This document shows, in pieces, positions 169 to 23,272 of a stretch of DNA of 34,795 nt; within the stretch, counting starts at the first letter, position 1, and each line of letters starts with the position of its first letter. The translations under genes and the position numbers were made by a program. The DNA is from Elusimicrobia bacterium GWC2_64_44 (lineage in GTDB: Bacteria; Elusimicrobiota; Elusimicrobia; Elusimicrobiales; UBA9959): positions 1 to 34,795 of the forward strand of contig MGUG01000001.1 in NCBI GenBank assembly GCA_001799845.1, read 5' to 3'. A model generated the notes under the pieces. It was not told the origin of the DNA. It ran no database searches and worked only from the letters and a program-made list of their open reading frames with translations.

Positions 169-179
169 ATCCATACACA

Positions 180-310
180 GCCTAAGCTGGCGCGACAAGC
201 GCCGGCGCGGGGGACCCAACTCCCTGTAGTTCAAGGGACGGGGCGCAGATAACGGCAAACCCGTTGTCAGGTCACTTCTAAGACCCAGCCCGTCAGCTAA
301 CCTCGTAGGC
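180..310 (+). promoter_or_regulatory. Cyclic di-AMP riboswitch (ydaO/yuaA class)
   Basis: The leader carries the conserved blocks of this class in order: a GCGGGGGACCCAA-like block at about 207-219, a GGGG-containing block near 240, and the diagnostic block CCGTCAGCTAACCTCGTAGGC at about 290-310, written here only to identify it. P1 is formed by GCCTA (180-184) and TAGGC (306-310). The corresponding Bacillus helix uses different but complementary bases, so the pairing is supported by covariation. A small hairpin (189-203, loop GACAA) sits inside. The class binds c-di-AMP and usually turns genes off when it is high; typical targets are K+ and osmolyte transport or cell-wall remodelling. The next gene is an APC permease resembling KimA, the founding ydaO target. 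Confidence 0.93.
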
Positions 311-353
311 ATTTGGAAGGGTGATCCAGCCGAAGCATAATACGCTATCGTCG

Positions 354-432
354 GGTCTCCCTGGAGAGACATAAGGACACAAAGAGCAGATCGCTCTTTG
401 GGTTCCCGCGTCCCTTCACACCTAAAAGGAGA
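354..432 (+). other. Possible expression platform of the c-di-AMP riboswitch
   Basis: Two hairpins lie between the aptamer and the gene: GTCTC/GAGAC (355-359 with 366-370) and AAAGAGC/GCTCTTT (381-387 with 393-399). Neither has a U-tract, so a standard terminator is not visible. TCTCC at 356-360 could instead pair with GGAGA at 428-432, which covers the ribosome binding site. Translational control is therefore possible but is inference. Confidence 0.35.
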
Positions 433-445
433 AGCTGCGATACGT

Positions 446-2449
446 ATGAACTCTCAGTTAAAAGGCAAAGAAGTGCTGGTCTTGAGCACCGCCATGCTCA
501 GTTTTATTTCTTTCTGGCGGGCGGCGGCGGTAGTGCTGTGCGACATGGGCTCGAGCGCCTATTACGCGGGCTCCATAGCCATGAACGCCTTCGGCCCGGC
601 GGCGCCGTGGTACGTGCTGGCGGTCATGGTGTTCGGCGGGCTGATGCTGGCGGTGTATGTGGAATCCTGCGCCATGTTCGTGCGCGGCGGCGTGTACAAG
701 GTGGTCAACGAGGCCCTGGGGCACTCCATGGCCAAGATCTCCGTCTCGGCGCTGATCTTCGACTACATGATAACCGGCCCCATCAGTTCCATCAGCGCCG
801 GGTTATACGTATCGGGCCTGCTGACCAACCTGCTGCCGCTCGTCCATATAAACTGGCATGTTCCGCCCAAGGTCTTCGCCGTGGTTTTCGCCGTCCTCGT
901 CACGCTCTACTTCTGGAAAGAGAACATCAAGGGCGTGGAGGAATCGAGCGACAAGAACTTCAAGATCATGGGCTTCGTGACCGTGGTCGGGGCTATACTG
1001 CTGGCATGGTCGCTCGTCACCGTCGGTCTCAGGGGCTTCACGCTCCCCCCTTTCGAGCTGAAGTTCACCCACGAGGCGCTGGGCTGGATGGCTCATTTCC
1101 CGGTCTGGCAAACGGTGGGGCTGATAGGCATAGTGATGGCCTTCGGACATTCCATACTGGCCATGAGCGGCCTGGAGACCCTGGCGCAGGTTTACAGGGA
1201 GATCGAGGACCCGAAGATAAAGAACCTCAAGCGCGCCGCGCTGGCGGTGTTCCTGTTCAGCTTCGTGTTCACCGGCGGGCTGACCTTCCTGTCCTCGCTC
1301 ATAATCCCCGGCGACCTGATAGCCGGCAAGTACGCCGACAACCTCCTGAGCGGCCTGGCGCTGGAACTCTCCGGGCCTTACTGGGCCCGGCTGGTGCTGC
1401 AGGTTCTGGTGGTGGTGTCCGGCAGCCTGATGCTGGTGGGCGCGCTGAACACTTCGCTCGTGGGGGCCAACGGCGTGCTCAACCGTGTGGCCGAGGACGG
1501 CATCCTGCACGACTGGTTCCGGCAGCTGCACAAGAAATACGGCACTACCTACCGGATGATAAACCTCATCGCGCTGTCGCAGATAGGGGTGATAATACTC
1601 TCGCGCGGGGACATCTACCTGATCGGCGAGGCCTACGCCTTCGGCGTGCTGTGGAGCCTGGTGTTCAAGACCCTGTCGCTGATCATCCTGCGCTTCAAGG
1701 ACCACACGCCGAGAGAATGGATGTTCCCGTTGAACTTCCGTCTGGGCCGCGCCTGGTTCCCGGCGGGGATGGTGCTGGTATTCGCGGTGCTGCTGGCGGC
1801 CAGCGTGGCCAACCTGCTGACAAAACGCGTAGCCACCATAGCCGGGCTGGTCTCCACGGCGGCGCTCTACGCGGTGTTCCAGGTCTCTGAGAACCTGACC
1901 CGGAAGAAACCGCGGCTTTACGCCTCTTCGCGGGATTCCGACGAGAAAATGAACCTGCGCCGGGAAAGCGATATCGGCGCCCTGCTGCCGGAGCTGGTTA
2001 AGCCTTTCAGGATACTGGTGCCGGTGCGCAACCCCAACAACCTCGCCCACCTCGCGCGGGTGCTGGAGACCGTAGACGACTCGAGCACAGAGATAATAGT
2101 GCTTTCCGCAAAGATCGCAAAGGGACTACAGTCAGCCGGGAGCGCCGCGGCCATAACGGAGGAGGACAGGGAACTGTTCACGCCGATAATCCTGCTGGCG
2201 GAAAAATACGGCAAGACCATAAAACCGCTGATGGTGGTTTCCAACGACCCGTTCTACTCCATAGTGCATACGGCGCAGGCCGTAGGGGCGGCGGAAATAG
2301 TTATGGGAGTCTCCGGCTCTACAGGGGCCGAAGTTCAACTGGAGAGATTAGCCATGACCTGGGGGATGGTCAAACAGGGAAACCCGGCAACGCCGATAAC
2401 GGCAAGAGTTATCTGGGCCGGGCGGGAGCTTACCTATAAGCTGACCTGA
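446..2449 (+). CDS. APC-superfamily permease with C-terminal USP-like domain; KimA-like K+ or amino-acid transporter
   Basis: A 667-aa inner-membrane transporter. The first ~490 residues hold about 12 hydrophobic segments in APC style, including a GGVYKVVNEALG loop, like the gly-rich GGAY loop of amino-acid permeases, followed by a segment ending DYMITGPISSISAGLY. The last ~140 residues (from KPFRILVPVRNPNN) form a soluble alpha/beta domain with a universal-stress-protein look, ending in a GVSGS-type nucleotide loop. KimA of Bacillus has the same permease-plus-soluble-tail layout and the same riboswitch class upstream, so K+ import under c-di-AMP control is the best inference; amino-acid transport is the alternative. 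I chose ATG 446. An in-frame TTG at 398 lies in the leader hairpin. AAGGAG at 426-431 is 14 nt from ATG 446, longer than usual. Confidence 0.85.
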   Translation: MNSQLKGKEVLVLSTAMLSFISFWRAAAVVLCDMGSSAYYAGSIAMNAFGPAAPWYVLAVMVFGGLMLAVYVESCAMFVRGGVYKVVNEALGHSMAKISVSALIFDYMITGPISSISAGLYVSGLLTNLLPLVHINWHVPPKVFAVVFAVLVTLYFWKENIKGVEESSDKNFKIMGFVTVVGAILLAWSLVTVGLRGFTLPPFELKFTHEALGWMAHFPVWQTVGLIGIVMAFGHSILAMSGLETLAQVYREIEDPKIKNLKRAALAVFLFSFVFTGGLTFLSSLIIPGDLIAGKYADNLLSGLALELSGPYWARLVLQVLVVVSGSLMLVGALNTSLVGANGVLNRVAEDGILHDWFRQLHKKYGTTYRMINLIALSQIGVIILSRGDIYLIGEAYAFGVLWSLVFKTLSLIILRFKDHTPREWMFPLNFRLGRAWFPAGMVLVFAVLLAASVANLLTKRVATIAGLVSTAALYAVFQVSENLTRKKPRLYASSRDSDEKMNLRRESDIGALLPELVKPFRILVPVRNPNNLAHLARVLETVDDSSTEIIVLSAKIAKGLQSAGSAAAITEEDRELFTPIILLAEKYGKTIKPLMVVSNDPFYSIVHTAQAVGAAEIVMGVSGSTGAEVQLERLAMTWGMVKQGNPATPITARVIWAGRELTYKLT

Positions 2450-5422: not shown

Positions 5423-6597
5423 CCACAGAGGCCGGCGCGAGACCTGAAGCGGCGGATATCCTGATGGTGGACGATACGCCCGCCAACCTGGAGCTGCTCT
5501 CCGGGATGCTGAGGGCGCGGGGCTACAGCGTGCGCGCCGCCGTCAGCGGAAAACTGGCGCTGCAGGCCGCCCGCAAATCCCCCCCGTCGCTGATCCTGCT
5601 GGACATCAATATGCCAGGCATGACCGGGTATGAAGTCTGCGCGGAGCTGAAGTCCGACGAGAAGCTTAAAGATATCCCCGTTATCTTCCTCAGCGCGCTG
5701 GTCGAGACCATAGACAAAGTGAAAGCCTTCGGCATAGGCGGCGTGGACTACATTACCAAGCCCTTCCAGCTGGAGGAGGTGGAGGCGCGCGTCGGGACCC
5801 ACCTGGAATTGCGCCGGCAGAAGCGCAAGGTCCAGGAGAGCTACGACAAACTGCGCGAGCTCGAGAGAACGCGCGACACCCTGGTGCACATGATCGTACA
5901 CGACCTCCGCTCGCCGCTGACGGCCGTCTACGGCCTGCTGGAGCTGCTCAAGGAAAATGGGGTGCAAACCCTTCCCGCGGAGCAGCGTCTCTACGTGGAC
6001 CAGGCCGCGAAGTCGGCAAAGGAGATGATCGGCATCGTCAGCGACATCCTGGACGCGAGCAAGCTGGAAGGAGGCCAGATGAAACTCAGGCTGGCCGACT
6101 GCGACCTGGCCGCCGCGGTGAAAGACACCATCTCCGGGCTGGCGCCGCTTTTCGGCCGCCGCGAGATACGGTTCTCCCCGCCCGACCGACCCGCGCTGGT
6201 GCGCGCGGACTGCGAGCTGGTTTCAAGGGTCCTCCAGAACCTGCTCGCCAACGCGTTGAAGTTCACTCCGGACGTCGCGCACATAGAGCTGGCGCTGGAG
6301 CCGGCCGACGGCAGCCTGCGCGTGAGCGTGCGGGACGACGGCCCTGGCATAGCGCCGGAGCACAGGAGCAAGATCTTCGAGAAGTTCGCCCAGGTGGGAC
6401 TGCCCACCGGGAGCCCGAAACATTCCACCGGCATCGGGCTTGCCTTCTGCAAGCTGGCGGTGGAGGCCCACGGCGGCCGCATCGGGGTGGACGGCGAAGC
6501 GGCAGGAAGCCGTTTCTGGTTCGAGCTGCCGCTGAACGGCCCGGCGGCCCCCGCTCCGGCGGCGGAACCGGAGAGATCCGCGTCCGCGCCCGCCTGA
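5419..6597 (+). CDS. Receiver - histidine kinase fusion (reverse-order hybrid)
   Basis: A 392-aa protein with an N-terminal receiver (D18/D19, phospho-acceptor D62 in LLDINMPGMTG, S92, K114) joined by a short coiled linker (~125-155) to HisKA with H161 in HMIVHDLRSPLTAVYG, then a HATPase with LLANALKF, a DDGPGIAP box and a TGIGLAFCK box. There is no sensor or transmembrane region, so its likely input is phosphorylation of the receiver, for example by the preceding kinase or via the single-domain regulator. The HDLRSP H-box differs from the HEIRTP of its neighbour. The start is set by the ATGA overlap with the previous gene. It converges with treT, with 15 nt between stops. Confidence 0.9.
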   Translation: MTTEAGARPEAADILMVDDTPANLELLSGMLRARGYSVRAAVSGKLALQAARKSPPSLILLDINMPGMTGYEVCAELKSDEKLKDIPVIFLSALVETIDKVKAFGIGGVDYITKPFQLEEVEARVGTHLELRRQKRKVQESYDKLRELERTRDTLVHMIVHDLRSPLTAVYGLLELLKENGVQTLPAEQRLYVDQAAKSAKEMIGIVSDILDASKLEGGQMKLRLADCDLAAAVKDTISGLAPLFGRREIRFSPPDRPALVRADCELVSRVLQNLLANALKFTPDVAHIELALEPADGSLRVSVRDDGPGIAPEHRSKIFEKFAQVGLPTGSPKHSTGIGLAFCKLAVEAHGGRIGVDGEAAGSRFWFELPLNGPAAPAPAAEPERSASAPA

Positions 6598-6612
6598 CCC
6601 GTTGCTCCGGTT

Positions 6613-7833
6613 TCAGAGATGGATAAAATCTTGCTTGCCGCTTTCCAGGTAAAGCGCCAGCAGCAGGTAATCCCGCAGGTGGCGCGTTAGCAGGAAGTTC
6701 TCCCGCACGTGCTCGCGGCCGTTCTCGCCCAGCTTTTTGGCGAAGGCCGGCTCGTGCAGCAGGCGCTTCATCCAGTACGCGGTCCCGTCGATGGTCCGGG
6801 TCAGGATGCCGGAGTATTTGTGGGTGATCTGCAGCGGTATGCCCCCCACCGCGCCGGCTATCACCGGTTTGCCCTTCCAAAGCGCCTCGGACACCGTCAG
6901 GCCGAAGCCTTCCTTCAGCGACTTCTGCAGAATGATAGTCGAGGCGCGCTGTATGGCGTTTATCTCAAGGTTCGCCGTCGGAGGCAAACAGAGCACTATG
7001 ATGTCCGGGACGCCCTCGGCCGCGGCGCGGGCTTCGGCCAGCACCTGGGAGCCTTCGGGGTCGTCGTCGGCGCTGCCGCCCACCAGCAGCAGCCGCGCCG
7101 TTACGTAGGGCTGTATCTTCTTGAAGGCCTCTATCACGCCCAGGGGGTCTTTCAGGCGGTCGAACCGGGAAACCTGCGTGATCAGCGGCTTGTCCAGCGG
7201 TATCTCCAGCCGCCGCAAGACCGCGGAGATCTCTTCTTCGGACAGTTCCCTGTTCTTGTCCGCCAAGGGGTCTATGGAAGGCGGGACCTGGAACTGCTGT
7301 ATGGGCAGGGCCTGGGAGAACGCCGGGGCGGAGATGACGGCGGCGTCGTAGCGTGAAACATAGCCGCGCAGGAATTCCCACACGTCGTCCTGGCGGTTGG
7401 ACAGGTCGATGTGGCAGCGCCAGATCCATTTGGCGCCCGCCGGTTTTTTATCTATCAGCCCCGCCGGCTGGGGGTCGTGGATAAGGGCGATATCGGCGTC
7501 CAGGTTAAGGGTCTCCAGGTTGGCCTTCTGCGTGTCGCGGTAAAGCTGGAAGTCCGCCGGGGTCAGTTCCTGACGCGTGCCGTGCAGGGCGTTGTGGAAT
7601 TTCTTGGTGACGGCGTAGAAGTCCTCGCCGCCCTTTACCAGCTCCCAGCGCGGCTTGATGCCCAGCTCGGTCATCAGCGGCAGCATGCGGTTGAGGATCT
7701 CGGCGACGCCGCCCCCTACCGCCGTGGAATTGACGTTGAGGATGGTCTTGCCCTTCAGCCTTTCCGCTATTATCTTGAGCTCTTCTATGGCGCTGCGGCC
7801 TGCCGCGGGCGCGTATTCTTCGATCTTAGGCAT
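6613..7833 (-). CDS. treT: Trehalose glycosyltransferring synthase TreT (GT4)
   Basis: A 406-aa GT4 glycosyltransferase resembling archaeal and thermophile TreT throughout: NVNSTAVGGGVAEIL near the N-terminus, a KFHNALHG segment, a LIHDPQPAGLI block, the WRCHIDLS block, VPPSIDPL and QVSRFDRLKDP in the middle, and the donor-site EGFGLTVSEALWKGKPVIAG motif. TreT makes trehalose from a nucleotide-diphosphate glucose and glucose in one reversible step. It is the last gene of the operon and overlaps the DUF5752 gene by 8 nt; GGAGG lies 6 nt before ATG 7833. The same operon also carries OtsA and OtsB, so two trehalose routes are co-expressed. No terminator is evident after the stop. Confidence 0.88.
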   Translation of the reverse strand: MPKIEEYAPAAGRSAIEELKIIAERLKGKTILNVNSTAVGGGVAEILNRMLPLMTELGIKPRWELVKGGEDFYAVTKKFHNALHGTRQELTPADFQLYRDTQKANLETLNLDADIALIHDPQPAGLIDKKPAGAKWIWRCHIDLSNRQDDVWEFLRGYVSRYDAAVISAPAFSQALPIQQFQVPPSIDPLADKNRELSEEEISAVLRRLEIPLDKPLITQVSRFDRLKDPLGVIEAFKKIQPYVTARLLLVGGSADDDPEGSQVLAEARAAAEGVPDIIVLCLPPTANLEINAIQRASTIILQKSLKEGFGLTVSEALWKGKPVIAGAVGGIPLQITHKYSGILTRTIDGTAYWMKRLLHEPAFAKKLGENGREHVRENFLLTRHLRDYLLLALYLESGKQDFIHL

Positions 7834-8500
7834 TTTTAACCTCCGGCAGGCGGCGCTCTATGATGCGGATTATCCGCCGCCTGAGGCTTTCGAGCGTGTA
7901 GGAATAAGGGTCCAGGCGGGAGATCTCCCTGCCTACGGTCTCGTCGTTAAAGTTAGTCCTGAACCAGTGGGAGAAGTCGTCCACGCCGTAGGGCGGGCGC
8001 AGCCGGGCCTCGAAGACGTGCAGGTAAAGGCTCGACGCGCTGACATTGCGAAGGCAGTCGATGAAGCTCTCATAATCGACGGCGGAGCACTCGGTGGGCA
8101 GGGAGAACCGTATGGCGCGCATGAAGTGGAATTCCCGCCCCGTCGCCACGGTGCGTCCCGGGCCCGGGTTCTCCGCCAGGTGCCGCTCCAGCACTTCGAC
8201 GAAGGCGCCGCGGATGTCCGCCAGCGAGTTATAGCGCACGATGTCTATGGAGGTCAGCTCCTCGCCCAGCTTGTCGGCCTGCACCGTGTTGGCGACCCAG
8301 TAGGCGAAATCGTTGGCGCCCTCCGGCACCAGGTGATGCGACTGCTTTATGAAGCGGTGGGTATGGTGGTAGATCACCGCATCGTCGGCAGCCTTTATCC
8401 CCTCCAGCAGTTCCGTTATGTTAAAGGCCTTGCGCCCGGTCACTTCCGTGAGCGTCAGGCGTGTGCAGAATTTGAATGGCGCCGCAGCAGTCGTTTTCAT
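7826..8500 (-). CDS. DUF5752-family protein of the trehalose operon
   Basis: A 224-aa soluble protein without signal or membrane segments. Its layout (FNITELLEGIK, the YHHTHRF segment, NDFAYWVANTV, then a second half with SSLYLHVFEARLRPP and DDFSHWFRTN) looks like DUF5752, a family I recall being found beside trehalose and glycosyltransferase genes. The two halves each contain a D-F-x-x-W motif (NDFAYW and DDFSHW) that suggests an internal duplication. The function is unknown; a regulatory or scaffolding role in trehalose synthesis is inference. It overlaps otsB by 4 nt (ATGA) and treT by 8 nt. Confidence 0.65.
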   Translation of the reverse strand: MKTTAAAPFKFCTRLTLTEVTGRKAFNITELLEGIKAADDAVIYHHTHRFIKQSHHLVPEGANDFAYWVANTVQADKLGEELTSIDIVRYNSLADIRGAFVEVLERHLAENPGPGRTVATGREFHFMRAIRFSLPTECSAVDYESFIDCLRNVSASSLYLHVFEARLRPPYGVDDFSHWFRTNFNDETVGREISRLDPYSYTLESLRRRIIRIIERRLPEVKNA

Positions 8501-9282
8501 TCCCCCCCCTTCTTCCTCGCCGCCGCGATGAACCGCAGCAGGCGCAGCACTTCGGCCTGTCCCGACAGGAAATAAACTGCTTTCGAGAGGGCCTTACGCC
8601 CCACCCTCACCGTTATCCCGCCGCCGGCCAGCGCGCCGAACATATCCTCGTCGGTAAGGTCGTCCCCCACGGCTACGGCCAGCGGCGCGCGCAGGCGGCG
8701 CGCCAGCAGGGCCACGGCGTCGCCCTTGTGCGAGGCGCCGCGCGGCAGCAGCTCGAAGACCTTATGCCCCCTGCGCCAATGCAGGCCGGCGCCGGGGACG
8801 GACAAAAGCGCTTTCATCCTGCTGAAAAAGCCGCGCTTGAAAGCCGGCCTGAGATTACGGTAATGCACGCTGGCCGAGAACGCTTTATTCTCCACCAGCA
8901 CGCCGGTGCCCGGCGGGAACCGCTCCTGCAGGTCGGCCGCGATCCCGGCCACCAGGCCGCGCGCTTTGACCGCGCCGGCGTCGCGCCAGGAGAGGCCGGG
9001 GCCCTCTATCTCTATGCCGTGGTTGCCGCCGTAGTAAAGGGCGCGCAGGCCGACCAGGCCGCGCACGCTGCGCAGCGCGCGCCCGCTGAGGATGAAAACG
9101 AAAACCCCCGGTGAAGCCGCCAGGGCCTTCAAGGCCGCCCGGAACGCGGGCTCGAGCCGCGCCTGCGCCGGGGTCTCGGCCAGCGCCGCCAGCGTGCCGT
9201 CAAAGTCCAGCGTCACCAGCAGCGCCGGCGCGGCGGCGAGGCGGGCGGCGAGCGCTTCGGAATTTTTCCAGAAAGACTTCAT
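8497..9282 (-). CDS. otsB: Trehalose-6-phosphate phosphatase
   Basis: A 261-aa HAD-superfamily phosphatase, normal length for OtsB. Motif I is LDFDGTLA (D26 nucleophile, D28 acid/base). Other family marks are LSGRALRSV, the NHGIEIEGPG segment near 100 typical of OtsB, the KVFELLPRG-SHKGDAV block with the motif III Lys, and motif IV GDDLTDEDMFGAL. It removes phosphate from trehalose-6-phosphate made by the upstream synthase, whose stop codon directly abuts its start (TAAATG), so the two steps are translationally linked. Confidence 0.93.
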   Translation of the reverse strand: MKSFWKNSEALAARLAAAPALLVTLDFDGTLAALAETPAQARLEPAFRAALKALAASPGVFVFILSGRALRSVRGLVGLRALYYGGNHGIEIEGPGLSWRDAGAVKARGLVAGIAADLQERFPPGTGVLVENKAFSASVHYRNLRPAFKRGFFSRMKALLSVPGAGLHWRRGHKVFELLPRGASHKGDAVALLARRLRAPLAVAVGDDLTDEDMFGALAGGGITVRVGRKALSKAVYFLSGQAEVLRLLRFIAAARKKGGE

Positions 9283-11532
9283 TTACACCCCGTTAAGTTT
9301 GAAGTCGTCCAGCCTCAGTTTCATCAGTTCTTCCGTGAGGTTGGCCGCCCATTTGTAGATGTTGTTCTCGTGCAGGTCCTGCCGCATGCGGGTCATCCGC
9401 TCCTCCACTTCCGCCTTGGGCATGACCAGCGAATAGTAGATAGCGTCGGCCATCTGCTCTATGTCGTAGGGGTTCACTATCAGCGCGTCCTTGAGCTCGC
9501 GGGACGCCCCGGCGAAACGGCTGAGTATCAGCACCCCGCGGTGGTCGTCGCTGGCCGCCACGAACTCCTTGGCCACCAGGTTCATCCCGTCGTGCAGGGA
9601 AGTGACCAGGCAGGCGTCGGCGATCTTGTAGAACTTGGTGATCTCCTGGTGGGCGTGGTGCTTCTCCAGGAAGACTATGGCCTTCCAGTCCTTGGCCTTG
9701 AAGCGCCAGTTGATGCGGTCCACCTCGGCGTGCAGCTCGGCGAGGAAGCGGTGGTACTGCGGGATATGAGTACGGCTGGGCGCGCCCAGCTGGATCAGCG
9801 TGAACTTGCCCTTGTAAGCCGGGTATTTCTCGAGGAAGCGCTCTACGGCTTTAACCCTCTCCAGCATGCCCTTGGTATAGTCTATACGGTCGACGCTTAC
9901 CGCTATCTTCTCCGCCTTTATGCCCAGTTCCTTCAGCACCGAGGCCGCCTCGGGCTTCTCGGGCAGGGTTTTGGCGTCCCGGTCCGGCTGCTGGAAGTCC
10001 ACGCTGATCGGGAACGGCTTGACCATGGTGGTATGGCCTTCTTTCTGCACCGAGAAATGCTCCCAGTCTATGCGCGACTCTATGGTGCGGTCCACGGTGT
10101 CCAGGAAGTTATTGCAGTAGAACTGCGTCTGGAAGCCTATCAGGTCCGCGCCGAGCAGGCCCATCACCAGCTCCTTCCCCCAGGGACAGATGCCGAAGGT
10201 CTCGGGGTTGGGCCAGGGGATATGCCAGAAGACCGCCACCCTGGCGTCGGGCCGCGCGGCTTTTATCATGCCCGGCAGCAGCGTGAAATGGTAGTCCTGT
10301 ATCAGCACGCAGGGTTCCTTCACGTCGGCGATCTCCTCCAGCACGGCCTTGGAGAACTTTTCGTTCACTTCGTAGTAGTACTTCCAGTCCTCTTTGCGGA
10401 AGATCGGCCGGATGTGGGCGATGTGGCAGAGCGGCCAGATGCCTTCGTTGGAGAAGCCGTAATAGTAGCCGTCCTCCTCTTCCTTGCTCAGCGCGACGCG
10501 GCGCAGGTTGTACGCGGGTTCTTCCGGCGGTACCTTTATGCGGTTATCCGCGTCGGTGACCTCAAAGTCGGCCTCGCCGCTGCCGTGCGCCACCCAGGTG
10601 CCGCCGGAAGCTTTCATGATAGGGTCCAGCGCGGTCACCAGGCCACCGGCGGGAACTATGGCCCGTATGTCCTTGCCCTCTTTAATGTGCATGTAGGGCT
10701 CACGGTTGGAGACCACGAAGAGCGGCCGCCCGCCCATTTTGGTTTTTATGTGCTCCTTGAGGCGTTCCGGGGTCCAGAGGGATTCGCCTTTTTGCCGCAG
10801 GCGCGCTTCGTTCTCGGCGGCGCGGCGGGCGGCCTGCAGGTTGGTCGCCAGCGTGGTCGCTTCCCTGGCTATCGGCGCGAAGATATCCCCTTTGATCGGG
10901 GGCACATGCCCGTTCTCTTCGCCTATGCGCAGGTTCTTCATCCACTCGGCCATCTGCGTAATGGGGTCCACCAGGTTCCACCTGATGATGAGCAGCGTCA
11001 CCAGCGAGATCAGGATCATCTGCGCGAGCAGCCTGATGAGGGTGCGCTTCCAGATCTGGAAAAGCTCCAGCTCTACGTAGGAGACGTTGCTGAAAATGGC
11101 GATCCAGGCGTTGCCGGCTTCGCCGAAGGTCAGCTTCAGCGGGTGCACCAGGACCCTGCGCTCTCCGAAAAGGAACTCAGCATCCTCCCCGGAGGCCAGC
11201 AGTTCTCCGATCTGTTTGCCGCGGCCCCTGATCTCGGGGGCTATCTCCGACGAGGCGGCAAGCAGTTCCCCGTCGCCGGAATAGACGGCCACGCCCTCCA
11301 GGTGCTTCTGGTCCTGGAACTTGTCGGCCAGCTTCTGCAGGCGCGCAGTGTTGCCGGTCTCGAGGTTAGGGCGTGCGCTCTCCTTGAAACTCTCGGCGAG
11401 CAGCGCCGCCTGGTCGCGAACCTCGCCGTAGCGCTTGAGCTTCTCCTGGCGGACGTTGAACCAGGCCGAGATCACGGCCACGGTGACGACCACCACTATC
11501 AGCGAAAGAATAAGCCTTAATGTTATACGCAT
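9283..11532 (-). CDS. otsA: Membrane-anchored sensor/HAMP - trehalose-6-phosphate synthase fusion
   Basis: A 749-aa protein. Residues 5-24 are a transmembrane helix, ~25-163 an extracytoplasmic sensor-like region, ~164-184 a second helix, and ~185-240 a HAMP-like linker (starting after [15 protein letters not shown]). From about 262 to the end lies a full GT20 domain: VVSNREPY, the [12 protein letters not shown] loop, [31 protein letters not shown], and the donor motif [11 protein letters not shown]. OtsA enzymes are normally soluble and ~450-500 aa, so the extra 260 residues are unusual and look like the input half of a chemoreceptor or kinase. ATG 11532 follows AAGGAA; an upstream in-frame alternative at 11571 lacks support. 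The catalytic domain would face the cytoplasm. Signal-controlled trehalose synthesis is inference. Confidence 0.92.
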
Positions 11533-11548
11533 AGGGATTCCTTTGTTA

Positions 11549-12595
11549 TTAATAAATTGCCCCGAGGGCAAGGAAGTAGAGCAGCAGCAGCGCTCCGCCG
11601 ACGGGAAGGGCTGCCCCGGCCCACTCGCGGCTCTTGATGCCGAGTTTCGCGGCGCTGATTATGTTCGGTATATTGCCCGGAATAAGCACGCCGCCGGAAA
11701 CCAGCAGGCTCAGCGTGAACGAAAGTATCTGTTCCCTGCTCATCGACGGAACTATCCCCGCGGCGGCCAGCGTGGCGTTGTCCAGGGCAGCGGAGGTCAG
11801 GCCCAGCCAGTAGAGCTGCCAGCCCTTCAGCGCCGGGATCAGTTTCTCGGCGACGGGGCTTAATCCCTCGCCCAGGTAAACCAGCGCCGCCACGAACACA
11901 TACACTCTGGCGGCGCGCAGCAGCAGGGCCTTGTGCGTCTCGCGCGCCTGGTCCGCGCCCTGCCCGGCCGCGGCCTCCCGGCCCAGGGGCCGCGCATACG
12001 CCGCTACCGCTGCGACCGCGAGTATGGCCGGTGTGACCCAAAGCCACAGCAGCCCGGCCAGCCAGAAGAACCCGGCATTGTGCGGCGGCCCCTGCAGCCT
12101 GGCGGTCACTATGGTAGAGAGCGGCTCCCCCAGGGGCGTCAGCGCAGCGCCCAGGCCTATGGCGTAGCAGGCGTACACGGCGGCGCGCACCCGCGACGGC
12201 CTGTCGAGCTTCAGGTGATGCAGTATCTCGCAGAGCACGAGGGCCGCGATTATAGCCGTAAGCAGGCTGGACAGGAAAGCCAGGGCGACTATCAGGACGA
12301 ACAAGGAATGCCGTATCCCTATCCGGCGCCCGAGCCGCTCGATAAGATCCTCCATGCGGCCCCGCCCCGACCGGAACAAATAGCCGGCGACCAAAACCGC
12401 AAGGGAGATCTTGAGAGGCTCTACCAGAGACTCTTTAACTATGTGCCAGTTCCACAGCCCGGAAACGGTCAAGGCGGCGCAGCCCATGATGAGCAGGAAG
12501 ACTTCCAGCTCTTCCTCCACCCGTTTTACCGAGAATGGCAACAGAAGTACCAGCGCCGTTATCAGCGCCAGGCTTCCTACGACCCAATAGGACAT
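11549..12595 (-). CDS. DUF1646-family ion transporter (putative Na+ transporter/antiporter)
   Basis: A 348-aa polytopic membrane protein with about 10 hydrophobic segments, standard length for DUF1646. Recognisable pieces are PFSVKRVEEELEVFLLIMG near the start, SSLLTAIIAALVLCEILHHL, the GLGAALTPLGEPLS loop, LDNATLAAAGIVPSMS, and GNIPNIISAAKLGI near the end. The acidic and NxP-type residues in membrane loops are typical of the ion-transporter superfamily. DUF1646 genes are characteristically preceded by the DUF1646-motif RNA, shown to be a Na+ riboswitch class, so Na+ export is the likely role. It starts 10 nt after the microprotein stop and ends 16 nt before otsA. Confidence 0.8.
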   Translation of the reverse strand: MSYWVVGSLALITALVLLLPFSVKRVEEELEVFLLIMGCAALTVSGLWNWHIVKESLVEPLKISLAVLVAGYLFRSGRGRMEDLIERLGRRIGIRHSLFVLIVALAFLSSLLTAIIAALVLCEILHHLKLDRPSRVRAAVYACYAIGLGAALTPLGEPLSTIVTARLQGPPHNAGFFWLAGLLWLWVTPAILAVAAVAAYARPLGREAAAGQGADQARETHKALLLRAARVYVFVAALVYLGEGLSPVAEKLIPALKGWQLYWLGLTSAALDNATLAAAGIVPSMSREQILSFTLSLLVSGGVLIPGNIPNIISAAKLGIKSREWAGAALPVGGALLLLYFLALGAIY

Positions 12596-12605
12596 TACCC
12601 CCCCT

Positions 12606-12764
12606 TCAGATAGCGATCGGGACCTTGAAAATGTATTTAAGGATAAGTATCACCGCCGCTGTAATAGCGACGGTTTTTGCCAATAGAAGCAGAAAAGTCC
12701 CCCACCCGGATTCGATCGCCTCCGGCTTTGCCGCGCCGGTATTCTTGTCGTTGTTCTTAGTCAT
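12606..12764 (-). CDS. 52-aa single-pass membrane microprotein, first gene of the Na+/trehalose operon
   Basis: ATG 12764 is preceded by GGAGG with a 4-nt gap. The reading frame gives 52 residues: a polar N-terminus rich in Lys, Asn, Asp and Gly (MTKNNDKNTGAAKPEAIESG), one hydrophobic helix (about 22-42), and a short tail with KYIFKVPIAI. It lies between the leader terminator and the DUF1646 gene (10-nt gap), so it is first in the transcript. I do not recognise a family. Position suggests a small accessory subunit or stabiliser of the DUF1646 transporter. The evidence for expression is the ribosome binding site, spacing and hydrophobic profile. Confidence 0.7.
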   Translation of the reverse strand: MTKNNDKNTGAAKPEAIESGWGTFLLLLAKTVAITAAVILILKYIFKVPIAI

Positions 12765-12826
12765 GCCGCCTCCGTTTTACGGGCGTTAGCCCGATCCCCG
12801 GCAAGCGGCCGCGCCAATACGCGAAC

Positions 12827-12868
12827 AAAAAGAATAGCCGCCGTCCGGTTTTAAACCGGAATGGCGGC
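12827..12868 (-). terminator. Leader (attenuator) terminator of the Na+/trehalose operon
   Basis: A two-part stem GCCGCC/GGCGGC (12868-12863 with 12842-12837) enclosing CCGGTT/AACCGG (12859-12854 with 12850-12845) is followed by TATTCTTTTT. It sits about 60 nt before the first start codon of the operon, so it must be bypassed for expression. GCCGCC overlaps the alternative GGAATGG/CCATTCC stem. Confidence 0.75.
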
Positions 12869-12909
12869 CCGACCATTCCAAACCTCCGGAGCTGTCTCCG
12901 GACCCTTGT
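12827..12909 (-). promoter_or_regulatory. Structured leader: candidate Na+-I (DUF1646-motif) riboswitch with overlapping terminator
   Basis: Read on the minus strand from a predicted start near 12909: AAGGG, then a perfect hairpin CCGGAG-ACAG-CTCCGG (12901-12886), then GGAATGG (12879-12873), which can pair with CCATTCC (12864-12858). The second arm overlaps an intrinsic terminator (12868-12827). These stems are mutually exclusive, the hallmark of a transcription-control riboswitch. No peptide-leader signature is seen. Assignment to Na+-I rests on the DUF1646 gene in the operon and the compact size; I cannot verify the consensus from memory. Confidence 0.6.
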
Positions 12910-12915
12910 GAAATA

Positions 12916-12944
12916 ATTCTACCTGAATAGCGGGGATGTGTCCA
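12916..12944 (-). promoter_or_regulatory. Strong sigma-70-type promoter of the Na+/trehalose operon
   Basis: On the minus strand TGGACA (12944-12939, 5 of 6) and TAGAAT (12921-12916, 5 of 6) are separated by exactly 17 nt. The predicted start near 12909 leaves a ~145-nt leader before the microprotein. The spacer contains one arm of an inverted repeat whose partner overlaps the end of the upstream gene (12960-12972). Confidence 0.75.
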
Positions 12945-12967
12945 CCCAAAAAACGCTCACCCCGCGG

Positions 12968-13585
12968 CTATTTTCTCAGATATTCCAGCTGCGTGATAAG
13001 TTTCCGGACGTTCGGATTCCCCTTCACCGGATACGCTCTCAGATACGCCAGCAGCTTGTCATTCTCGGGCTGAACATCTTCGGGCGCTCCCTGCGCCCAG
13101 CCCAGGTCCAGATACTTCGGCAAGCAGTCGAAAGAGGCCGGCGAAAGCCCTGCCGCGGCCCTGGCGAACTTCGCCGGGTCCTTGTAGGCGAATGTATTGA
13201 AGTCCTCGCTTATCCATTCAGACATTTCAGCGTTGTTGTCGAAAACCCGGCAGAGCTCCTCGAAAACCATCAGCCCGGCCTTAGGAGAGCGCTTGTAGCG
13301 CTCTTCCGCCAGCAGCATTACTTTGGAGTCGGGGCCATTCCACTTTCCCTCGTTATAGTACACTCCGAGTTCGGACTTTAAAGCGCCGGCATTGTTAATT
13401 AAGCCCTTAGCCTGGAATTCTCCCATCCTGCGCCCGAATTCAGCGACGCGTATTGCGTCTTGCCTGTCGGACTCCAGCAGCACCGCCTGCCACTCCCTTT
13501 CCCGCTTCTGATGCCAGAGCTTCAGCGCCGATCCCAACAGGGCCAGGACAATAGCGATTACCCACAACAGACGATAGTTTTTCAT
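12968..13585 (-). CDS. Membrane-anchored protein of unknown function (envelope operon gene 5)
   Basis: A 205-aa protein with one N-terminal hydrophobic helix (about residues 6-22, an uncleaved anchor or signal) followed by a soluble, charged, mostly helical domain rich in Lys, Glu and Arg. I recognise no family. The ATGA overlap (13582-13585) with the preceding 97-aa gene shows translational coupling. It is the last gene of a five-gene operon; after its stop there is a T6 run but no convincing terminator. The soluble part is probably extracytoplasmic if the N-terminus is a signal anchor. Confidence 0.75.
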   Translation of the reverse strand: MKNYRLLWVIAIVLALLGSALKLWHQKREREWQAVLLESDRQDAIRVAEFGRRMGEFQAKGLINNAGALKSELGVYYNEGKWNGPDSKVMLLAEERYKRSPKAGLMVFEELCRVFDNNAEMSEWISEDFNTFAYKDPAKFARAAAGLSPASFDCLPKYLDLGWAQGAPEDVQPENDKLLAYLRAYPVKGNPNVRKLITQLEYLRK

Positions 13586-21664: not shown

Positions 21665-23209
21665 ATGCCCCCCATCTCCGGTTACGCCCCGTCCGCCGCG
21701 GCTGTTTTCCTGACCCTGCTGGCCGCCGTTAATTTCACCGGCGCGGCCCTGCACGCCCGGCTGCTCTACTCGCCGGCCGCGGCCTGGGCCGGGATCGCCG
21801 GCCTCGCCTCAGGGCTGGTCTTCGTGACCGCCGCGCGGCTGCGCACTCCGGGTTTCTGGACCGCGCCGCGCGCCGTGTTGGCCGCGCTCGCCTGCGGGCT
21901 GTGGGGACTTTACCTGCTGCTGTTCTCGCTGGGCCCGGCCTACTGGCTGCTGGATATAGTTTTCGCCATCATCGCGCTGCTGCTCCTGCTCGGGCGGGAA
22001 AAGCCGGCGTTCCTCGCCGCGGGTCTCGGTATCTTCGCCGTTATCGGGATCAGGCACGTGCAGAACGACTTCTTCATCGCCCTGTTCAACCTGATATTCT
22101 GCTGCTGGGCCCTATGGCGCGGCACCGACCTGGCCGAAAGAATTACCGCGGGCCGGATCGCGCAGTGGAGTGGAGCCAGGAGACCTGTGCGCGCGGCCGT
22201 CGCGGCGGCGGTGTTCGCCCTGCTGGCCGTCTACGTGGCCCGCCCGGTACTGCTGATGGTCTACCCGCCGGCGCGTCACGGGCTGCTGCTGCGCCTGCAG
22301 CCCTCCTTCCCCGTAACGCCGCCGGAGAAACTCTCCCCCCAGGCCGCGCTGCTGCGGGCGCATGTAGTGGCGCTGGCCGGCAAGATAGGCGAGCGCTCCG
22401 CCTACCAGCCCGACCAGCAGGACCAGGCGCGCGACTACATAGCCGCCGAGTTCAAGAAGGCCGGCTACGCCCCCGAATTCCTGGAATACTCCGCGCAGTT
22501 AAAGAGCGCTTCCGGCCGCACGCGCCCCTATTACAATATCGAGGCGCGCCTCGTGCCGCCGAACCCCGCCCCCGGCGGGGCGTGGATACTGGCCGCGCAT
22601 TACGATACGGCCCCGGGCACGCCGGGCGCCGACGACAACGCCAGCGCCGTGGCCATCCTGCTGGAAGCCGCCCGCCTGCTGCGCAAAGAGAACCCGGCCC
22701 GCGAGATCCGCCTGGTGGCGTTCAGCACCGAGGAGCCGCCGTCGTTCACCACGCGCGACATGGGCAGCTTCCGCTACATGCGCTACCTCAAGGAAGGCGG
22801 CGTAGAAATACACGGCCTCCTGAACCTGGAGATGCTTGGCTATTTCAACCCGAAGCCCGGCGCGCAGCTGTTCCCGCCGTTCATGAACCTGCTGCACCCT
22901 GACACCGGCGACTTCGTCTCGCTGGCGTCGAACCTCTCGAGCTACGGCCTGATGAAATCCGTGGAGAAGGCCTGGAAACAGGCCACGGCCCTGCCCATAG
23001 AAACGGTCTTCCTCCCCTCCGTGCCGTCGGCGCTGTTCATTTCGGACCATCTGAACTTCTGGTTCTCCGGCGAGCGCGCGGTAATGCTGTCAGACACCGC
23101 CTACTTCCGCAACCCCAACTACCACCAGTACAGCGACACCCCGGACACCCTGGACTACGAACGCATGGCCGAGATAACCCGCGCCGTGACGGCCGTGACG
23201 CGGCAATAG
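21665..23209 (+). CDS. Membrane-anchored M28-family zinc aminopeptidase
   Basis: A 514-aa protein. The first ~200 residues contain six to seven transmembrane helices of no recognised family; the rest is an M28 peptidase. Metal and catalytic residues are H312 and D314 in AAHYDTAPG, D323 in GADDN, E356/E357 in FSTEEPPSF, E389 in LNLEMLGYF, and H487 in NYHQYSDTPDTLDYE. M28 enzymes are usually secreted or soluble aminopeptidases, so tethering to a multi-helix domain is less common. The peptidase would face the periplasm if the last helix orients that way. It is divergent from the symporter and ends before a strong terminator. Confidence 0.87.
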   Translation: MPPISGYAPSAAAVFLTLLAAVNFTGAALHARLLYSPAAAWAGIAGLASGLVFVTAARLRTPGFWTAPRAVLAALACGLWGLYLLLFSLGPAYWLLDIVFAIIALLLLLGREKPAFLAAGLGIFAVIGIRHVQNDFFIALFNLIFCCWALWRGTDLAERITAGRIAQWSGARRPVRAAVAAAVFALLAVYVARPVLLMVYPPARHGLLLRLQPSFPVTPPEKLSPQAALLRAHVVALAGKIGERSAYQPDQQDQARDYIAAEFKKAGYAPEFLEYSAQLKSASGRTRPYYNIEARLVPPNPAPGGAWILAAHYDTAPGTPGADDNASAVAILLEAARLLRKENPAREIRLVAFSTEEPPSFTTRDMGSFRYMRYLKEGGVEIHGLLNLEMLGYFNPKPGAQLFPPFMNLLHPDTGDFVSLASNLSSYGLMKSVEKAWKQATALPIETVFLPSVPSALFISDHLNFWFSGERAVMLSDTAYFRNPNYHQYSDTPDTLDYERMAEITRAVTAVTRQ

Positions 23210-23227
23210 CCCGGGGCCCAAAAAAAC

Positions 23228-23253
23228 AAAAGCCCCGCCGTAGCGGGGCTTTT
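23228..23253. terminator. Bidirectional intrinsic terminator
   Basis: An 11-bp stem AAAAGCCCCGC/GCGGGGCTTTT (23228-23238 with 23243-23253, loop CGTA) is flanked by A- and T-rich ends. It lies between converging genes (M28 stop 23209, M15 stop 23273) and can end both transcripts. Confidence 0.9.
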
Positions 23254-23272
23254 TTACGTCCTGGTGGTCAGG

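What the first reader, a model, noticed from the sequence alone, without database searches (positions are those of the whole stretch)
6613..12944. One transcript couples a candidate Na+ riboswitch, a DUF1646 transporter and two trehalose pathways
Six minus-strand genes (52-aa microprotein, DUF1646, HAMP-OtsA, OtsB, DUF5752, TreT) have gaps of 16 nt or less, mostly overlaps, and share one strong promoter and an attenuator-type leader. If the leader senses Na+, a single RNA switch would turn on both Na+ removal and compatible-solute synthesis. Putting both trehalose routes behind a cation-sensing RNA is, as far as I know, not described as a system.
Basis: partly seen in the sequence, partly recalled or inferred. 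Interest (0 to 1): 0.85.

Follow-up and report, generated by a model that had tools for sequence, protein, structure and literature searches.

The report
Cation riboswitch runs a trehalose operon
In an uncultured Elusimicrobiota bacterium, an RNA element of a class known to sense lithium or sodium sits in front of one gene run that probably moves a cation and makes the protective sugar trehalose, and the same pairing recurs across the phylum and in the Omnitrophota, which suggests a salt-response switch made of RNA.

Summary
The six-gene minus-strand run is real. It matches Rfam RF03057, nhaA-I (49.0 bits, cut-off 37), the published Li+-I class, whose terminator-bearing relatives include the Na+-sensing Na+-II variants. 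RF03071 (Na+-I) does not match. Aptamer helix P2 and a strong terminator exclude each other, so ligand should turn the operon ON. The association is conserved: in the genus the same 21 of 32 genomes carry nhaA-I and this trehalose-phosphate synthase; in the phylum 58 of 81 nhaA-I sites have that gene within 2.5 kb on the same strand. The gene between switch and synthase is interchangeable (DUF1646, Na+/Ca2+ exchanger, PF00999 exchanger, or none). [quoted passage not shown] Most likely this is a Na+ (salt) sensor for osmolyte production, but the ligand is unproven: no ion was tested, and the one published specificity nucleotide, by my mapping, reads Li+-like (U). Co-transcription is inferred; a simple scan lists more terminator-like sites than chance. 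New variant of a known kind.

The parts
12916..12944 (-). sigma-70-type promoter TGGACA-17-TAGAAT, 10 nt before the aptamer
   Evidence: 10 of 12 matches; best site at least 9/12 in 29 of 34 family nhaA-I leaders against 10.7% of shuffles
12859..12905 (-). nhaA-I riboswitch aptamer (P1 and P2)
   Evidence: RF03057 49.0 bits, gathering 37, E 6.2e-07 in the window; 3.2e-09 in 181 nt; P1/P2 pairing kept with changes on both sides across 135 distinct sites
12824..12869 (-). intrinsic terminator: hairpin 12869-12836, whose 5' arm is the P2 loop and 3' arm, then a U-rich tract to 12824
   Evidence: the 91-nt leader folds with the terminator at -37.9 kcal/mol, forcing P2 gives -29.3; in growing transcripts, sampled every 3 nt, P2 is in the best fold at 49-61 nt and the terminator from 70 nt
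12606..12764 (-). 52-aa microprotein with one hydrophobic stretch, function unknown
   Evidence: ORF; homologues of 49-52 aa, 33-73% identical, in 5 further of 34 family sites at the same place; no Pfam or NCBIfam family
11549..12595 (-). DUF1646 membrane transporter, probably cation
   Evidence: PF07854 328 bits; weak local similarity to NhaD, 23.4 bits against a cut-off of 577
9283..11532 (-). trehalose-6-phosphate synthase (OtsA, GT20) with a ~280-aa membrane/sensor-like N-terminal part
   Evidence: PF00982 393 bits over residues 285-749 of the 762-aa reading from the TTG start; model matches OtsA/TPS structures, TM-score by target 0.83-0.89 for the 50 rows shown; N-terminal layout
8497..9282 (-). 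trehalose-6-phosphate phosphatase (OtsB)
   Evidence: PF02358 114 bits; TIGR00685 123.3 bits over its cut-off 68.05
7826..8500 (-). DUF5752 protein, unknown function, partner of TreT by position
   Evidence: PF19027 194.6 bits; precedes TreT at every nhaA-I site where one search found TreT
6613..7833 (-). trehalose glycosyltransferring synthase (TreT-like)
   Evidence: PF21269 TreT_GT1 179 bits and PF00534; NF041139 358.6 bits, under that model's cut-off of 775

Best explanation
The leader is a transcriptional ON riboswitch of the nhaA-I class that most likely reports cytoplasmic Na+ and controls a salt-response operon. Shown by sequence and computation: class, terminator overlap, gene order, promoter, conservation across a phylum. 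Inferred: without ion the nascent RNA folds into the terminator and stops about 75-80 nt after the start of the aptamer. [quoted passage not shown] The operon then removes the cation (DUF1646) and makes trehalose by OtsA/OtsB and by TreT, the swap of ionic for organic osmolyte that salt-stressed cells make. The gene after the switch is exchangeable between unrelated cation transporters while switch and synthase stay, so the common purpose is cation stress coupled to osmolyte supply.
For: Class: RF03057 above cut-off, RF03071 absent. Platform: P2 and terminator exclusive. A terminator-like structure using the P2 arm occurs in 28 of 34 family sites, 24 of 47 other Elusimicrobiota sites, 27 of 29 Desulfobacterota and 26 of 26 Omnitrophota sites read, against 12-16% after shuffling the downstream part. 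Target: the same 21 of 32 genus genomes have nhaA-I and the synthase. In 340 phylum genomes 62 have both, 5 only the RNA, 49 only the synthase, 224 neither. 58 of 81 RNA sites have the synthase within 2.5 kb on the same strand, 19 within 100 nt. By my reading these lie in 16 of the 19 families that have the RNA. Transporter slot: of the 26 family sites with the synthase, 9 have DUF1646 first, 5 a Na+/Ca2+-exchanger-like gene, 12 nothing recognised; four sites in other families have PF00999 exchangers. Other targets that fit salt stress: SBP_bac_1 binding proteins (5 sites), MscS, Na_Ca_ex, CitMHS. Against a pure Li+/NhaA role: no NhaA in the own genome, 90% complete, and none by tblastn in 81 regions. 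Na+-I is missing from the phylum sample (0 of 334 over cut-off, strict filters), so this RNA could fill that role. The pair at the foot of P1 (model 5:26) is C-G, U-G or U-A in 133 of 135 sites, not the G-C of the Rfam consensus.
Against: No ion was tested. The published specificity nucleotide (position 54 of the D. propionicus RNA: C in the Na+ sensor, U in most nhaA-I RNAs) maps, by my inference, to model position 42, where the window has U; most relatives have U too (34/34, 44/47, 24/29, 26/26), which on its own points to Li+ or relaxed binding. 27 of 75 long synthase matches have no nhaA-I match within 2.5 kb upstream (one of the 27 has a degenerate copy), so the coupling is common, not obligatory. 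Some sites precede genes with no plain salt role: DegT aminotransferase, UPF0164, VTT, TPM, FtsH-like, Band_7. The 2x2 test ignores shared ancestry. Co-transcription is inferred from spacing, and terminator-like sites are more frequent in the region than in shuffles (16 against 5.7), one lying just before otsA. Transport by this DUF1646 is unproven.
Confidence: 0.56

Rival explanations
1. A true Li+-I riboswitch: it senses Li+, DUF1646 exports Li+, and trehalose genes are raised because Li+ disturbs trehalose or glycogen metabolism.
For: Class membership; U at the inferred specificity position; the Li+ paper offers this reading for T6P synthase.
Against: No NhaA in the own genome or, by tblastn, in 81 phylum regions; many targets are osmotic genes; P1 foot differs from the Rfam consensus; terminator-bearing relatives of the class are where Na+ sensing was found.
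Confidence: 0.17
2. A relaxed monovalent-cation sensor (Na+, Li+, NH4+) that in nature reports whichever is high, mostly Na+.
For: The published C54U mutant of the Na+-II RNA responds to Li+, Na+ and NH4+, and the window carries U at the position I take to be 54, with a terminator platform.
Against: The position mapping is inferred from numbering, not read from the figure; the other sequence differences between these RNAs are not tested.
Confidence: 0.2
3. The riboswitch serves only the first one or two genes; the trehalose genes have their own promoter and the neighbourhood is incidental.
For: No transcript data; a weak terminator-like site lies at the 3' end of DUF1646 just before otsA, and the region has 16 such sites against 5.7 expected. 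This raised my odds from 0.05 to 0.07, taken from the best explanation.
Against: The synthase follows the RNA directly in many sites: 19 of 81 within 100 nt, eight of these at 8-17 nt; no further minus-strand promoter-like site; gaps of 16 nt or less.
Confidence: 0.07

Closest known systems
nhaA-I motif / Li+-I riboswitch (RF03057; PMC9646797, parts 1-3 of 6 and passages read)
   Same: Covariance-model match over cut-off; P2 loop core; ON logic expected; the paper mentions T6P synthase and DUF1646 as occasional neighbours.
   Different: Different base pair at the foot of P1, terminator platform, no NhaA found nearby or in the genome, main target is trehalose synthesis.
Na+-II riboswitch (rare nhaA-I variants, D. 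propionicus; same paper)
   Same: nhaA-I fold with a terminator overlapping the aptamer; genes other than nhaA.
   Different: U instead of C at the (inferred) specificity position; outside the Deltaproteobacteria, where the paper found its terminator-bearing variants (it also mentions environmental tandem and triple examples).
Na+-I riboswitch (RF03071, DUF1646 motif; PMC9337991, passages read)
   Same: Two-hairpin plan, terminator control, DUF1646 and osmolyte genes as targets.
   Different: No covariance-model match; different consensus at the foot of P1 and in the P2 loop.
OtsA-OtsB and TreT trehalose routes
   Same: Family-level domain matches for all three enzymes.
   Different: OtsA carries an extra ~280-aa membrane/sensor-like N-terminal part and stays under the NCBIfam OtsA cut-off (438.6 against 564.85); both routes in one operon with DUF5752.

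Membership tests
nhaA-I RNA (RF03057, Li+-I) | Covariance-model score over Rfam gathering cut-off | tested here: met
   49.0 bits against 37
nhaA-I RNA (RF03057, Li+-I) | G-C pair at the foot of P1 (model 5:26) as in the Rfam consensus | tested here: not met
   C-G in the window; C-G, U-G or U-A in 133 of 135 sites of three phyla
nhaA-I RNA (RF03057, Li+-I) | Genomic link to nhaA (common in the class, not strict) | tested here: not met
   No PF06965 in the own genome, 90% complete; no tblastn match in 81 phylum regions
nhaA-I RNA (RF03057, Li+-I) | Selective Li+ binding | not testable with these tools
   needs in-line probing
Na+-II riboswitch | Intrinsic terminator as expression platform | tested here: met
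Na+-II riboswitch | C at the position equivalent to D. propionicus 54 | tested here: inconclusive
   U at model position 42; that 54 equals 42 is my inference from numbering and from C/U variation at this place
Na+-II riboswitch | Na+ binding in the low mM range | not testable with these tools
   needs in-line probing
Na+-I riboswitch (RF03071) | Covariance-model match | tested here: not met
   no hit at E<=5 in the window or E<=10 in 181 nt of leader; 0 of 334 phylum genomes over cut-off, one weak match
DUF1646 (PF07854) | Pfam score over cut-off | tested here: met
   328.1 bits against 21.4
HAMP domain in OtsA | Pfam HAMP match | tested here: not met
   none at E<=0.001 or E<=5 on residues 1-285; helical layout and invariant P190, E224 are only suggestive
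TreT | TreT N-terminal domain PF21269 plus GT4 domain | tested here: met
   179.4 and 68.9 bits; NCBIfam equivalog cut-off not reached

The most novel reading that the evidence does not exclude
Elusimicrobiota, Omnitrophota and some Desulfobacterota use a distinct group of nhaA-I RNAs, marked by a changed pair at the foot of P1 and often a terminator platform, as their general Na+ sensor. In the first two phyla it drives a salt regulon of trehalose synthesis, MscS channels, solute import and swappable Na+ exchangers. In the window organism control may be two-layered: the RNA reads the ion inside the cell, and the membrane-anchored OtsA reads a signal outside it.
Probability: 0.35. Interest if true: 0.75.

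Novelty: new variant of a known kind. Interest (0 to 1): 0.6.

Why it matters
The paper that described Li+ riboswitches left open whether those near trehalose genes sense Li+ or are Na+ variants of an osmotic response. This window and its relatives give a large conserved set in which that can be tested directly, and they show that in Elusimicrobiota the class mostly precedes osmolyte synthesis and not nhaA. The swapping of unrelated transporters behind a constant switch is natural evidence for what DUF1646 does.

Tried and rejected
Na+-I/DUF1646 motif for the leader: rejected. NhaA as the hidden target: not found in the own genome or by tblastn in 81 regions; among the other regions searched it matched only Desulfosudis oleivorans, one near-full-length match and one partial (the partial one at a place held twice). 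The second DUF1646 gene of the genome (G000:C44) as a riboswitch target: no Rfam match within 1.5 kb on either side at E<=1; it lies before a tryptophanase-like gene by my reading of the translation. Degenerate riboswitches before synthases without a match: an exact-core search upstream found one (G042:C53, C variant, 83 nt upstream) and none in G011, G012, G022:C75, G010, G017, G019, G020. One search used an OtsA query shifted by one base; its OtsA rows are void and were redone. The 81 sites are 80 plus G027:C32; one of them (G239) is below the Rfam cut-off. Of the Omnitrophota loci given to one (L366) was dropped because the script found no core. Of the rows only those fetched as new loci were read (29 of 65; 27, 26 usable), the best match per genome, so these counts are not a random sample. 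That the phyla are Desulfobacterota and Omnitrophota rests on the titles of L211 and L213 and, for the first, on recall of GTDB. The fold search of the full model gave only synthases among the 50 rows shown, so I have no structural relative of the N-terminal part.
Full report
What is there. Six minus-strand ORFs lie between 12764 and 6613 with gaps of 10, 16 and 0 nt and overlaps of 4 and 8 nt. Pfam and NCBIfam name DUF1646, a GT20 trehalose-6-phosphate synthase, a trehalose phosphatase, DUF5752 and a TreT-like glycosyltransferase; the first ORF of 52 aa has no family but has homologues at the same place in 5 further of 34 family sites. A promoter TGGACA-17-TAGAAT ends 10 nt before the aptamer and such sites recur in relatives. 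The same scan lists 16 terminator-like sites in 6300-13100 against 5.7 expected, 7 on the minus strand, one at the 3' end of DUF1646; the leader terminator is not among them. One transcript is therefore likely but not shown.

The leader. Rfam RF03057 (nhaA-I) matches 12905-12859 at 49.0 bits, cut-off 37. A terminator (12869-12836, then a U-rich tract) starts inside P2: the 91-nt leader folds with P1 and the terminator at -37.9 kcal/mol, and forcing P2 costs 8.6 kcal/mol. In growing transcripts, sampled every 3 nt, P2 is in the best fold at 49-61 nt and the terminator from 70 nt. A ligand that holds P2 would allow read-through. This is the logic described for the terminator-bearing variant of the class.

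Where it lies. The phylum is Elusimicrobiota: contigs of relatives found have the same lengths as named Elusimicrobia records (G025:C8 and MGTV01000008.1, both 280712 bases; G026:C28 and MGTZ01000028.1, both 84420; G027:C23 and MGUA01000023.1, both 46858; contig lengths of the relatives).

The association. In the genus 21 of 32 genomes have nhaA-I, and exactly these 21 have the synthase at E<=1e-40. In the family 26 of 34 nhaA-I sites lead to the synthase; 21 of the 26 show OtsA, OtsB, DUF5752 and TreT in the stretch fetched; of the other five one (G036) is cut by its contig end. In the phylum (340 genomes) 58 of 81 sites have the synthase within 2.5 kb on the same strand; a random stranded position in a 3-Mb genome would do so in about 0.04% of cases (my arithmetic). 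Genome counts: both 62, RNA only 5, synthase only 49, neither 224; Fisher p 4.5e-31, without correction for ancestry. Of 75 long synthase matches 48 have the RNA upstream and 27 do not.

The slot between. Of the 26 family sites with the synthase, 9 have DUF1646 first (one of them, G049, followed by an exchanger), 5 a Na+/Ca2+-exchanger-like gene and 12 nothing recognised. Of the five, three are 71-81% identical to the query exchanger and two only 25%; Pfam confirmed three of the five, one of the 25% pair among them, and the other two were not scanned. Four sites in other families have PF00999 exchangers; the one scanned with NCBIfam is nearest to the CPA2 model, under its cut-off. In G056 two cassettes follow one another, the second with its TreT cut by the end of the stretch. 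In eight sites of families f14 and f15 the aptamer ends 8-17 nt before the synthase start, without a terminator that the script recognised, so control there may be translational.

Other targets in the phylum, from first ORFs scanned with Pfam: SBP_bac_1 binding proteins (5 sites; the one scanned with NCBIfam is nearest to MalE, under its cut-off), Na_Ca_ex, MscS, Band_7/SPFH, CitMHS, VTT, TPM, an FtsH-like protease, DegT, UPF0164 and a permease-like protein. Not all fit salt stress. No NhaA was found by tblastn in 81 regions. Of 26 Omnitrophota loci read, within about 1.5 kb 11 show the synthase, 6 an MscS-like and 7 an SPFH gene, some in combination. In named records the synthase or the cassette follows the RNA in several Omnitrophota and in single Verrucomicrobia and Riflebacteria and Nitrospirae records and two Deltaproteobacteria records, some at low identity. 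Of 29 Desulfobacterota loci 27 gave none of the query genes; four first ORFs were scanned, giving an exchanger, a CitMHS transporter, a binding protein and a pentapeptide-repeat protein.

Ligand. The paper on Li+ riboswitches shows Li+ for typical members, Na+ for a terminator-bearing Deltaproteobacterial variant with C at position 54, and loss of selectivity (Li+, Na+, NH4+) on changing C54 to U. I place position 54 at model position 42 by its numbering and by the C/U variation seen there; the figure was not available. The window has U. Against Li+ stand the main targets, the missing NhaA, the changed pair at the foot of P1 (133 of 135 sites are C-G, U-G or U-A), a place named as part of the ion pocket in the related Na+-I RNA, and the absence of Na+-I from the phylum sample (0 of 334 over cut-off). 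My weights: Na+ 0.56, relaxed 0.2, Li+ 0.17, incidental neighbourhood 0.07.

The synthase. Its first ~280 residues show a long helix, an alpha/beta part, a second long helix and a third helix before the GT20 fold in the AlphaFold model (mean pLDDT 80.7, pTM 0.62). The C-terminal part matches known synthases. This resembles a membrane receptor plan, but Pfam gives no HAMP match, and a separate N-terminal model could not be made.

Known and new. Li+-I, Na+-II and the occasional T6P synthase neighbour are published. I found no paper that joins riboswitch, trehalose and Elusimicrobiota (none) and none that names DUF5752 (none); the library holds only open papers, and the paper that first described nhaA-I was not held. 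New here, as far as these searches go, are the dominance of the trehalose target in Elusimicrobiota, the exchangeable transporter slot, and terminator platforms in Elusimicrobiota and Omnitrophota.

Noticed in passing
window 169-326 (+), gene 398-2449 (+): A c-di-AMP riboswitch (60.1 bits, cut-off 38) directly before an AA_permease_2 transporter; a second osmotic-type riboswitch about 12.5 kb from the first. K+ import is a guess.
   Followed up: partly
window 33860-33715 (-): Cobalamin riboswitch, 40.3 bits, cut-off 31.5.
   Followed up: no
window 23194-23256 (+): A strong G+C hairpin with U-tract, read on both strands as leader and sRNA families below cut-off; probably a bidirectional terminator.
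   Followed up: no
G056:C27, L045: Two riboswitch-DUF1646-OtsA-OtsB-DUF5752-TreT cassettes in a row, the second cut by the end of the stretch in TreT.
   Followed up: partly
L063, L057, L040, L154, L163: nhaA-I before SBP_bac_1 substrate-binding proteins, which suggests that uptake of a sugar osmolyte is also under this RNA (one scanned with NCBIfam, nearest MalE).
   Followed up: partly
L145 (G192:C4): Two nhaA-I aptamers about 1.1 kb apart, one before DUF1646 and one before OtsA, in one gene run.
   Followed up: partly
OtsA matches of G235, G331, G332, G335, G336, G337 and a few others: One or two in-frame stop codons inside the match; unexplained, perhaps matches that run past a stop.
   Followed up: no
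window 8500-6613 (-): DUF5752 precedes TreT at every nhaA-I site where one search found TreT; it may be a TreT partner.
   Followed up: partly
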